Below, one piece after another: positions 1,650 through 4,865 of a stretch of 39,886 bases of DNA (the first letter of the stretch is position 1; every line of letters starts with the position of its first letter). The stretch comes from an uncultured cyanobacterium (GTDB lineage: Bacteria > Cyanobacteriota > Cyanobacteriia > CACIAM-69d). Under the pieces are notes generated by a model that worked only from the letters and a program-made list of their open reading frames with translations, did no database searches and had not been told where the DNA came from. The position numbers were made by a program, and so were the translations under genes. The DNA lies in assembly GCA_937883785.1 (NCBI GenBank), contig CALGDE010000153.1:1-39886 (forward strand). The letters run 5' to 3'.

Positions 1650-1697
1650 CCAGCGCGTTGGCGCAGCCTCTCCTTTGGAGAATCGCCCCGTTCCCTT
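1650..1697. repeat. Palindromic intergenic repeat at the TPR gene start
   Basis: On the minus strand, directly after the acetyltransferase stop codon, TCTCC-AAA-GGAGA forms a small hairpin and is followed by GGCTGCGCCAACGCG. I recall very similar strings (a GGAGA hairpin followed by GGCTGCGCCAACG) as dispersed repeats in cyanobacterial genomes. It occupies the place where the start of the TPR-CHAT gene is expected, which makes that start uncertain. Confidence 0.4.
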
Positions 1698-2845
1698 TAC
1701 AAACTCTTTTCGTAAATGCGGTAGCTCTTGTAAATTTTGCCGCCCGCCTTTTCCACAATTTTCCGCGACGACATATTATCCTCATACACCCAGCCCAACT
1801 CCGCCCAGGTGTAGCGCTTATTCTTCTTCGTTCCCCCCTGAAATGCCAAATGCACCATCGCCAACGGAATTAACTTCCGGCGATGCTCCGGCAAAGAAGC
1901 AAAAGCCAACACCCGCACTCGTTCAATGGTGCGCCGGAACCACAAAAACTTCAGGATGCCAATAAAATCCAGCCTTCCGTTAACCCGCTTCAATACCTCG
2001 TTATAGTCCGGCAGCGCCATAAAAAAGCCCACCATTTCCCCGTCAATTTCAGCAATGGGAAATAGGTCAGGGTCTACCAAACTTTGCAAGGACTTAGCTT
2101 CCTCAAAAAATTCATCCTCCGTGCGGGGCGTGGAACTCCAATTATTGGCAAAGGTTTCCGTAAATAGCCGATACAGCGATCGCACATCCCGCTCAAAATC
2201 CTCCCCCTTAGTGGCAATGGGACGGAACGTAACCCCAGACTTTGTGGCAATTTTGTAAGCCTTTTCAAACTGCTCCGCCATATCGTGGGGCTCGAACCGA
2301 TAGGCATAAGCATCCTTCGCCTTGGTAAATCCATAGCTTTCCCACAGGGTCGGATAGTGGGGCGGATTGTAGGGCATCATCACCATCGGTGGCTCCTCAA
2401 ACCCATCAATCAGCATCTGACAGTTATTGTGGGTGGACAGATCAATAGGTCCCCGAATCCGCATCATTCCTTGGGACCGTAACCACTCCGCCGCCGCCTC
2501 AAATAACCCCGTCGCCACCGCCTCATCATCAACACATTCAAAATATCCAAACAACCCAATGGCAGACTCTTCCCGCTCCACCAATCGCTGATTCACCGAC
2601 GCCACAATGCGCCCCACCAGGGAATCGCCCCGCTTCGCAATAAATCCCTGAAGCTTGCCGTAGGCGCGAAACGCTCCGTCCGCTCCCAGTTGCTTAGCAA
2701 CATCGCTACGCAAAGGCGGTACCCAGTTGGGATCGCCACCGTAGATTTTCTGGGGCACATCCAAAAACTGCTGCAAATCGTCATCACTACCCACCGGCTG
2801 GATAGTTAACGCTGGGGGAGCGATCGCGCTGGAGGTAGACGTCAT
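1697..2845 (-). CDS. GNAT-family N-acetyltransferase-like protein
   Basis: A protein of about 380 residues, conserved in cyanobacteria and other bacteria and usually annotated as GNAT N-acetyltransferase; the substrate is unknown. The N-terminal part holds a motif around YGGDPNWVPPL and a GLFGYFE strand. The middle has RGPIDLSTHNNCQMLIDGFEEPP, and the C-terminal half ends with an acetyl-CoA-fold signature (AELGWVYEDNMSSRKIVEKAGGKIYKSYRIYEK). The ATG at 2845 (MTSTSSAI) is preferred to the upstream GTG at 2884, because residues between them look non-conserved and the family normally starts shortly before the LTIQPV strand. The gene lies downstream of the DnaA-box cluster and is followed at once by the TPR-CHAT remnant. 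Confidence 0.75.
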   Translation of the reverse strand: MTSTSSAIAPPALTIQPVGSDDDLQQFLDVPQKIYGGDPNWVPPLRSDVAKQLGADGAFRAYGKLQGFIAKRGDSLVGRIVASVNQRLVEREESAIGLFGYFECVDDEAVATGLFEAAAEWLRSQGMMRIRGPIDLSTHNNCQMLIDGFEEPPMVMMPYNPPHYPTLWESYGFTKAKDAYAYRFEPHDMAEQFEKAYKIATKSGVTFRPIATKGEDFERDVRSLYRLFTETFANNWSSTPRTEDEFFEEAKSLQSLVDPDLFPIAEIDGEMVGFFMALPDYNEVLKRVNGRLDFIGILKFLWFRRTIERVRVLAFASLPEHRRKLIPLAMVHLAFQGGTKKNKRYTWAELGWVYEDNMSSRKIVEKAGGKIYKSYRIYEKSL

Positions 2846-3242
2846 AGCTGGGAACCACACCTTCAAAAATCGGAAGCTTGGCACTTAATATAGCTTTGAG
2901 CTTTGGCTTTGTCCGCAACTGTGATCGCGGTGAGCGTCCGTTAGCCAAGGGGATTAGTGGCGATCGCTCCCACGGATCGCCCACTGGAACTCTATTACCC
3001 AAACAAAATTTCCACAGGTTTTCCACAGGTTTTCCACAGTTTTCCACAGAAAATTCCAGGTTTTCCACAGAAAGAACTCCCTGCCGCAGTAATTACAGCA
3101 GGGGATCGATGCCTCCAATTGCGGGGGGAAATCAAGCCCATGATCAGGCCAATGACTCAATCAACGGCACACTAAATCACAAAACCTCGCAGTGTGAACT
3201 TGTAGTTAAAAACGCCCCAAAAGCCTTTACTCCGATACTTCT
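2846..3242. other. Intergenic region with DnaA-box cluster
   Basis: This 397-bp gap separates guaA from the acetyltransferase gene, both on the minus strand. It holds the phased TTTTCCACA array described separately. The rest shows no convincing gene; open frames here are made by the repeated boxes themselves. No strongly AT-rich unwinding region is visible beside the boxes. Confidence 0.7.
3008..3069 (+). repeat. Cluster of helically phased DnaA boxes
   Basis: Exact copies of TTTTCCACA begin at 3019, 3030, 3040 and 3061, and a one-mismatch copy (ATTTCCACA) begins at 3008. A decayed copy may occupy the gap near 3051. Spacings are 11, 11, 10 and 21 bp, so all boxes lie on the same face of the helix and in the same orientation. 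TTTTCCACA is the DnaA box reported for cyanobacteria. Only one other exact copy was noticed in the window (1749-1757, inside a gene). The cluster could be a replication-origin element, a DnaA-titrating or reactivating site, or a DnaA-controlled promoter for the acetyltransferase gene. Confidence 0.7.
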
Positions 3243-4865
3243 TTATTCCCACTCAATGGTTCCAGGGGGCTTAGAGGTAATGTCATAAACCACTCGATTG
3301 ACCCCTTCCACTTCGTTAACGATGCGATTTGAAATCAGCTCCAATAATTCATAGGGAGCCCGAGACCAGTCTGCCGTCATTCCGTCTTCACTGGACACAA
3401 ACCGCAGCACGATGGGGTAAGCATAGGTGCGCTTATCACCCATCACTCCCACGCTCTTAACTGGCAAAAGCACCGCAAACGCCTGCCAAAAATCGTGGTA
3501 AAGCCCATGGCGGTTGATTTCCTGACGCACAATTAAGTCCGCCTCGCCTAGGATTTTTAGCTTCGCTGGCGTCACTTCGCCCAAAATGCGAATCGCTAAC
3601 CCCGGACCGGGGAACGGCTGGCGGCGCACAATCTCGTCAGGCAATCCCAGCGATCGCCCCACCTTGCGCACCTCATCCTTAAACAACTTCCGCAGCGGCT
3701 CCACAAGCTTAAATTGCAGATCCTCCGGCAAGCCGCCCACATTGTGGTGGCTCTTAATCTTAACCGCCACCCGCTCCCCTGTTTTCGGGTCCACATTCGT
3801 ATCCGCTGACTCAATCACATCGGGATACAACGTGCCCTGAGCCAAATAATCAAAGGGTCCCAGCCGCTTCGACTCCGACTCAAACACCCGAATAAACTCG
3901 TGTCCAATTCGCTTTCGTTTTTCTTCGGGATCTGTCACCCCCACCATCCGCGATAAAAACCGCTCCGACGCATTTACATACTCCACCGGAATGCGGAATT
4001 CCTCTTTAAACAACTTCATCAACCGTTCCGGCTCGCCCTTGCGCATAAAGCCCTGGTCAATAAACATGCAGGTGAGTTTGTCACCGATGGCCCGGTGCAG
4101 CAAAAACGCCAGCGTCGACGAATCTACCCCTCCCGATAGGGCCAGCAACACCCGTTTATCGCCGACCCGCGCCTTCACTTCCCGAATGGACTCTTCCACA
4201 AACGCCTCAGTGGTCCAGGTGGGCTGAGCCTGGCAAATGTGATACACAAAATTGCGAATCAGCGCCAGTCCCCCCTTTGAGTGCACCACTTCTGGGTGGA
4301 ACTGCACGCCGTAAAGCTTGTGTTTGTGGTGGGCGATCGCTGCACAGGCGGTGTTCGCCGTATGCCCCAACAGCTCAAAACCGTCGGGCAGCGCTGTACA
4401 GGAATCCCCATGGCTCATCCACATGGTGGTGCCATCATCCACGTTGGTCAGCAAATCGGTGGGGTCGTCAATAAAAAATGCCGCTTTACCGTATTCGCCC
4501 CGCTCCGCTGACTCCACCTGCCCCCCCAGTTGCTGCACCATCAGCTGCATGCCGTAACAAACCCCCAGCACCGGGATCCCCAGCTTCCAAATCTCGGGAT
4601 CACACACTGGCGCATAGGGGTTGTACACCGAATTGGGACCGCCGGACAAAATAATACCTTTGGGAGCAAGCTGGGCAAGCTGCTCTGCCGTGGTGCGGTA
4701 GGACAGCACCTCAGAATACACTTCTGTTTCTCGAATGCGACGGGCAATCAGCTCAGAATACTGGGAGCCAAAATCGAGAATCGCAATAAATTGGCGATTG
4801 ATTTCCGGCACCTCAGGGGCAGAGGTGTTGGTAGAAACAGCGGGGGCTTTAGGGGTGGTGGTCAC
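3243..4865 (-). CDS. guaA: GMP synthase (glutamine-hydrolysing)
   Basis: Converts XMP, ATP and glutamine to GMP in the cytoplasm, the last step of guanine nucleotide synthesis. The 540-residue product has the usual fused architecture. A class I glutamine amidotransferase domain occupies about residues 25-215 with nucleophile Cys103 (GVCYGMQ) and His190/Glu192 (FHPEV). An ATP-pyrophosphatase domain follows with P-loop SGGVDSS at 244-250, and the C-terminal dimerisation domain ends in PPGTIEWE, the normal GuaA ending. The first 22 residues are a Thr/Pro/Ser-rich extension. It is flanked by large intergenic regions on both sides and so is probably transcribed alone. Confidence 0.97.

What the first reader, a model, noticed from the sequence alone, without database searches (positions are those of the whole stretch)
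3008..3069. Phased DnaA-box array away from dnaA and dnaN
Four exact TTTTCCACA boxes and one near copy, all in one direction with 11, 11, 10 and 21 bp spacing, lie in the 397-bp gap between guaA and an acetyltransferase gene. TTTTCCACA is the reported cyanobacterial DnaA box. Helical phasing and single orientation argue for co-operative DnaA binding rather than chance. It could be part of a replication origin, a DnaA-titrating or reactivating site, or a DnaA-regulated promoter. Against an origin: flanking genes do not change strand here, and no AT-rich unwinding region is evident.
Basis: partly seen in the sequence, partly recalled or inferred. Interest (0 to 1): 0.7.

Follow-up and report, generated by a model that had tools for sequence, protein, structure and literature searches.

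The report
Conserved off-origin DnaA-box array
Next to a housekeeping gene this cyanobacterium carries a short row of binding sites for DnaA, the protein that starts chromosome copying; the row is not a replication origin, it is kept beside the same gene in many other cyanobacteria, and it probably helps control when copying starts.

Summary
Window 3008-3069 holds one near and four exact TTTTCCACA boxes, all in one direction, at steps of 11, 11, 10 and 21 bp (chance about 3e-9 per genome). The genome has only three such clusters: this one, one upstream of a DUF2811 gene, and a denser two-way cluster with a DnaA-trio beside dnaN. The last is the likely origin, so the window array is not.

The array is conserved. 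In 77 named cyanobacterial guaA loci chosen without regard to boxes, TTTTCCACA is the commonest 9-mer in the 600 bp after guaA: 57 copies toward guaA, 3 away, steps mostly 20-22 bp. In the sister species it is the main conserved island of the gap. The DUF2811 array is nearly universal. Three genomes without dnaA have no paired boxes; DUF2811 is lost in two and boxless in the third. DnaA-trios flank 18 of 29 dnaN-side clusters and 0 of 98 others.

Best reading: an off-origin DnaA-binding platform that tunes DnaA availability or activity, working like B. subtilis DnaA-box clusters or E. coli datA/DARS. DnaA binding is strongly inferred; the regulatory action is not shown. The open-access literature searched describes no such sites in cyanobacteria.

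The parts
3008..3016 (+). near DnaA box ATTTCCACA
   Evidence: in the sister species only TCCACA of it is kept
3019..3027 (+). exact DnaA box TTTTCCACA
   Evidence: identical and equally spaced in the sister species
3030..3038 (+). exact DnaA box
3040..3048 (+). exact DnaA box
3061..3069 (+). exact DnaA box, two turns after the previous one
3079..3103 (-). terminator-like hairpin (10 pairs) on the guaA strand, between guaA and the array; chance level in shuffles is 0.9 such sites
3243..4865 (-). guaA (GMP synthase), whose 3' end faces the array
   Evidence: orthologues with the same arrangement
1697..2845 (-). GNAT acetyltransferase gene on the other side; its start lies 163 bp from the array; not a conserved partner outside the genus

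Best explanation
The array is an off-origin DnaA-binding site. DnaA monomers bind the five boxes in one orientation on one face of the helix (one- and two-turn steps), so that they can form an ordered row. The row withholds DnaA from oriC or changes its nucleotide state, and so tunes initiation timing. It belongs to a set of three DnaA-box clusters typical of many cyanobacterial genomes: oriC beside dnaN, an array upstream of DUF2811, and this array at the guaA 3' flank. Shown here: the boxes, phasing, direction, conservation, absence of origin features, and absence of box clusters where dnaA is lost. Inferred: DnaA binding, oligomer formation, and the effect on initiation.
For: Same word and same flanking letters (G before, G after) as at oriC; TTTTCCACA is the experimentally supported cyanobacterial DnaA box (PMC4674748). 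Conserved beside guaA in box-blind loci with one direction and 20-22 bp steps. Only conserved island of note in the gap in the sister species. Array stays beside its other neighbour when guaA is absent. No paired boxes in three dnaA-less genomes although single copies are as common as elsewhere. No DnaA-trio in 98 non-dnaN clusters against 18 of 29 dnaN ones. The gene across from guaA runs toward the array in 22 of 32, so a promoter role is not general.
Against: No binding or deletion data. The guaA array is patchy (21 of 78 loci), so it is dispensable in many lineages. Its distance to oriC is not fixed, unlike E. coli datA/DARS. About 100 single boxes exist per genome, so five more would titrate little unless binding is co-operative. 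Only three dnaA-less genomes could be tested.
Confidence: 0.6

Rival explanations
1. DnaA-controlled transcription: DnaA bound to the array regulates a flanking promoter (here the GNAT gene, elsewhere DUF2811), as a transcription factor.
For: In the window the array lies 163 bp upstream of the GNAT start, with a weak promoter-like match between them. The sister array is always upstream of DUF2811 and points at it.
Against: At guaA the gene across the array differs between genomes and runs toward the array in 22 of 32. The GNAT-side sequence is not conserved in the sister species. guaA itself ends at the array, so its promoter is not there.
Confidence: 0.22
2. The array is part of a second or back-up replication origin.
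For: Cyanobacteria that lost DnaA-oriC dependence replicate from several places (PMC7198777).
Against: oriC-like cluster is on C15. No two-way boxes, no AT-rich stretch, no DnaA-trio at the array or at any of 98 non-dnaN clusters. Clusters are absent in dnaA-less genomes, where back-up origins would be most needed.
Confidence: 0.04
3. Another protein, not DnaA, reads TTTTCCACA here.
For: No binding data exist for this site.
Against: The same extended word serves oriC, and clusters are absent where dnaA is absent.
Confidence: 0.06
4. Chance or a tandem-repeat expansion without function.
For: Part of the array is a near-perfect 10-11 bp repeat (GGTTTTCCACA).
Against: Chance about 3e-9. In relatives the spacers differ and only the boxes recur, at the same place and direction. 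The reversed-word control gives 0 arrays in 291 genomes.
Confidence: 0.02

Closest known systems
Bacillus subtilis DnaA-box clusters (DBCs) outside oriC
   Same: Several DnaA boxes in intergenic DNA away from oriC; removing six of them gives early initiation (PMC5295017).
   Different: Cyanobacterial arrays are single-direction, phased at 10-11 and 20-22 bp and sit at two recurrent loci (guaA, DUF2811). Effect on initiation untested.
E. coli datA, DARS1 and DARS2
   Same: Off-origin clusters of about three to five boxes that control DnaA activity (PMC4585315, PMC5295017).
   Different: E. coli sites need IHF/Fis sites and keep a relative distance to oriC; here the distance to oriC is not conserved, and IHF/Fis are to my knowledge absent from cyanobacteria (not searched).
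Cyanobacterial oriC beside dnaN
   Same: Same 9-mer and same extended context (G before, G after).
   Different: oriC has boxes in both directions, an AT-rich flank and in many genomes a DnaA-trio; the guaA array has none of these.

Membership tests
Off-origin DnaA-box cluster (DBC-type) | Several DnaA boxes clustered in intergenic DNA outside oriC | tested here: met
Off-origin DnaA-box cluster (DBC-type) | DnaA binds the cluster in the cell | not testable with these tools
   needs ChIP; indirect support from dnaA-less genomes
Off-origin DnaA-box cluster (DBC-type) | Loss advances initiation | not testable with these tools
   needs deletions
E. coli datA / DARS | Conserved relative distance to oriC | tested here: not met
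   0.04-0.45 of the chromosome in complete genomes (positions)
E. coli datA / DARS | IHF (and Fis) sites within the element, nucleotide-state change of DnaA | not tested
   no IHF/Fis site search was made; the biochemical activity needs an assay
Bacterial oriC | Beside dnaN/dnaA with boxes in both directions | tested here: not met
   met at C15
Bacterial oriC | DnaA-trio and AT-rich unwinding stretch beside the boxes | tested here: not met
   no GC-skew test possible with 167 unordered contigs
DnaA-regulated promoter | Boxes placed upstream of the same gene in relatives | tested here: not met
   At guaA the far gene varies and runs toward the array in 22 of 32. The criterion is met for the sister array at DUF2811.

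The most novel reading that the evidence does not exclude
Cyanobacteria share a DnaA control circuit: a guaA-side array acts as a DnaA-remodelling or titrating platform, and the DUF2811-side array makes DUF2811, a small unstudied cyanobacterial protein, a DnaA-responsive (perhaps DnaA-regulating) gene. This would be a cyanobacterial counterpart to the DnaA control systems of E. coli and B. subtilis, lost when dnaA is lost.
Probability: 0.3. Interest if true: 0.85.

Novelty: new variant of a known kind. Interest (0 to 1): 0.68.

Why it matters
How cyanobacteria limit DnaA is open: work on S. elongatus concludes that as-yet-unknown factors regulate DnaA besides its own ATPase (PMC6478999). Two conserved off-origin sites give concrete targets: ChIP-qPCR primers, deletions, and one candidate gene (DUF2811). 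They may also give a genome-level marker of whether a lineage still uses DnaA, because the clusters were absent in the three dnaA-less genomes tested.

Tried and rejected
Origin reading: rejected (C15 oriC, no DnaA-trio, no AT-rich stretch). Simple tandem repeat: rejected (spacers differ, boxes recur in relatives). Promoter of GNAT as the general role: rejected at guaA (varying neighbours that mostly run toward the array; GNAT-side DNA not conserved). Fixed distance to oriC as in E. coli: tested, not found. The ORFs that run across the array (2787-3068 - and 2878-3288 +) were set aside as spurious because the flanks are not conserved in the sister species. Literature searches for DnaA-box clusters, datA/DARS or guaA with DnaA boxes in cyanobacteria found no description of such sites; only open-access papers were searched. 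The original B. subtilis DBC paper is not held, so it is cited through a review.

Full report
CHECK. The array is as described: + strand boxes at 3008 (one mismatch), 3019, 3030, 3040 and 3061, in the 397-bp gap between guaA (3243-4865, -) and a GNAT acetyltransferase gene (start 2845, -). The window is one whole contig (C153) of a 4.84-Mb cyanobacterial draft genome in 167 contigs. The genome has 105 exact boxes but only three places where two exact copies lie within 39 bp on one strand: C15, C27 and this window. Same-strand pairs expected by chance: 0.04, observed 7; a run of four: about 3e-9.

THE ORIGIN IS ELSEWHERE. C15 (3.16 kb) carries dnaN and, upstream of it, ten boxes of at most one mismatch in both directions. 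That flank is 63.7% AT, with one 50-bp stretch of 80%. One box (GTTTCCACA) is followed by G-CTACTACTACTA, the DnaA-trio arrangement of the basal unwinding system (sequence; motif from PMC8287927). dnaA itself lies on C101 without a cluster. The third cluster (C27) has five boxes in one direction at steps of 11, 11, 21 and 21, upstream of a DUF2811 gene. That C15 is the origin is an inference from these features.

THE THREE-CLUSTER PATTERN IS GENERAL. In 59 relatives, 48 have paired boxes and none has a pair of the reversed word. In 291 class members, 102 have three-box arrays at 19-22 bp steps, reversed control 0. I fetched about 120 neighbourhoods and typed 127 clusters by neighbour: 29 beside dnaN (24 with both directions), 40 upstream of DUF2811, 33 beside guaA, 25 other. 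In every guaA case the main direction of the boxes points at the 3' end of guaA, in every DUF2811 case at that gene. These counts come from box-selected places, so two box-blind sets were made.

BOX-BLIND TEST AT guaA. 80 named cyanobacterial guaA loci were found by protein similarity. Within 500 bp after guaA exact boxes occur at 1.5 per kb, against about 0.03 elsewhere in the loci. TTTTCCACA is the most frequent 9-mer in the first 600 bp: 57 toward guaA, 3 away. The exact to one-mismatch ratio is 57:9 against 19:273 in the background, and 32 of 39 steps are 20-22 bp (enrichment p about 1e-66, direction p 6e-14; these p values ignore the relatedness of the loci). Arrays occur in 21 of 78 loci, spread over Leptolyngbyaceae-type lineages, Elainella, Oscillatoria, Trichocoleus, Kastovskya and Okeania, and need at least 11 changes on the guaA tree. 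I read that as an old site with many losses, but the tree alone cannot tell gain from loss. In eight of the 25 'other' cases the array sits beside a CDF transporter or the F13 gene, the usual partners across from guaA, so the array can stay when guaA is not there.

BOX-BLIND TEST AT DUF2811. DUF2811 occurs in 95 of 96 class genomes. In the 30 best-scoring loci, 62 exact boxes point at the gene within 700 bp and 5 away; 21 loci have at least two and one has none. No paper on DUF2811 was found.

LINK TO DnaA. A curated DnaA model is at noise level in three near-complete genomes (G142, G149, G156). They hold 93-112 single boxes but no pair. DUF2811 is absent from two of them; in the third no box of up to one mismatch lies in the 900 bp upstream. 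All 15 dnaA-bearing genomes of family f32 keep one exact and one to three near boxes there, mostly at 22-bp steps, pointing at the gene. Fisher p for DUF2811 against dnaA is 0.0014. One dnaA-bearing genome (G244) also has no exact pair. The numbers are small, but every dnaA-less case goes the predicted way.

NOT AN ORIGIN, NOT A GENERAL PROMOTER. With a strict motif, DnaA-trios flank 18 of 29 dnaN-side clusters and 0 of 98 others. At guaA the gene across the array runs toward it in 22 of 32 loci, so no promoter of either neighbour lies there; 10 have a start on that side, as in the window. In the sister species the four exact boxes and their spacing are identical, while the sequence between array and GNAT, and between array and guaA, is mostly not conserved.

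MECHANISM. Shown: sequence, phase, direction, place, conservation, covariation with dnaA. Inferred: DnaA binds; one- and two-turn steps put monomers on one face and allow an ordered row; the row either withholds DnaA or alters its ATP/ADP state. Because some 100 single boxes also exist per genome, pure titration by five boxes looks weak unless binding is co-operative, which favours an active platform. I put about 0.9 on DnaA binding, 0.6 on control of DnaA as the main role, 0.22 on transcription, 0.04 on an origin. The sister array at DUF2811 may well act on transcription; the two sites need not do the same job.

COMPARISON. It works most like the B. subtilis DnaA-box clusters. It cannot be filed as datA or DARS: the distance to oriC is not conserved (E. 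coli conservation), and IHF/Fis sites were not tested. The papers read describe cyanobacterial boxes only at oriC.

LIMITS.

Noticed in passing
L010:6754-7477 (G000 C27): DUF2811 gene preceded by a phased DnaA-box array; gene nearly universal in the class, missing in two of three dnaA-less genomes, and with no paper in the library. A candidate DnaA-linked protein.
   Followed up: partly
G000 C14:77014-78207 (L046:7014-8207): Second beta-clamp gene (dnaN, 397 aa), 59% identical to the chromosomal one, beside a DNA cytosine methyltransferase near a contig end; looks like a prophage or plasmid copy. No DnaA boxes there.
   Followed up: partly
L127, L141, L153, L167, L086 (guaA arrays): Some guaA arrays carry one extra box in the opposite direction 15 bp before the first (TTTTCCACA-N6-TGTGGAAAA in exact cases).
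   Followed up: no
L009:41-1096 (G000 C15): An XerC/D-type integrase gene lies beside dnaN and the oriC-like cluster on the same 3.16-kb contig.
   Followed up: no
G143, G054 (genus g25), about 220-260 kb from oriC: A further two-box site (TTTTCCACAGGGTTTTCCACA) at a similar distance from oriC in two genomes of one genus.
   Followed up: no
family f32 genomes, DUF2811 upstream: Here the DUF2811 array is kept as one exact plus one to three near boxes at mostly 22-bp steps, so exact-word scans undercount arrays.
   Followed up: partly
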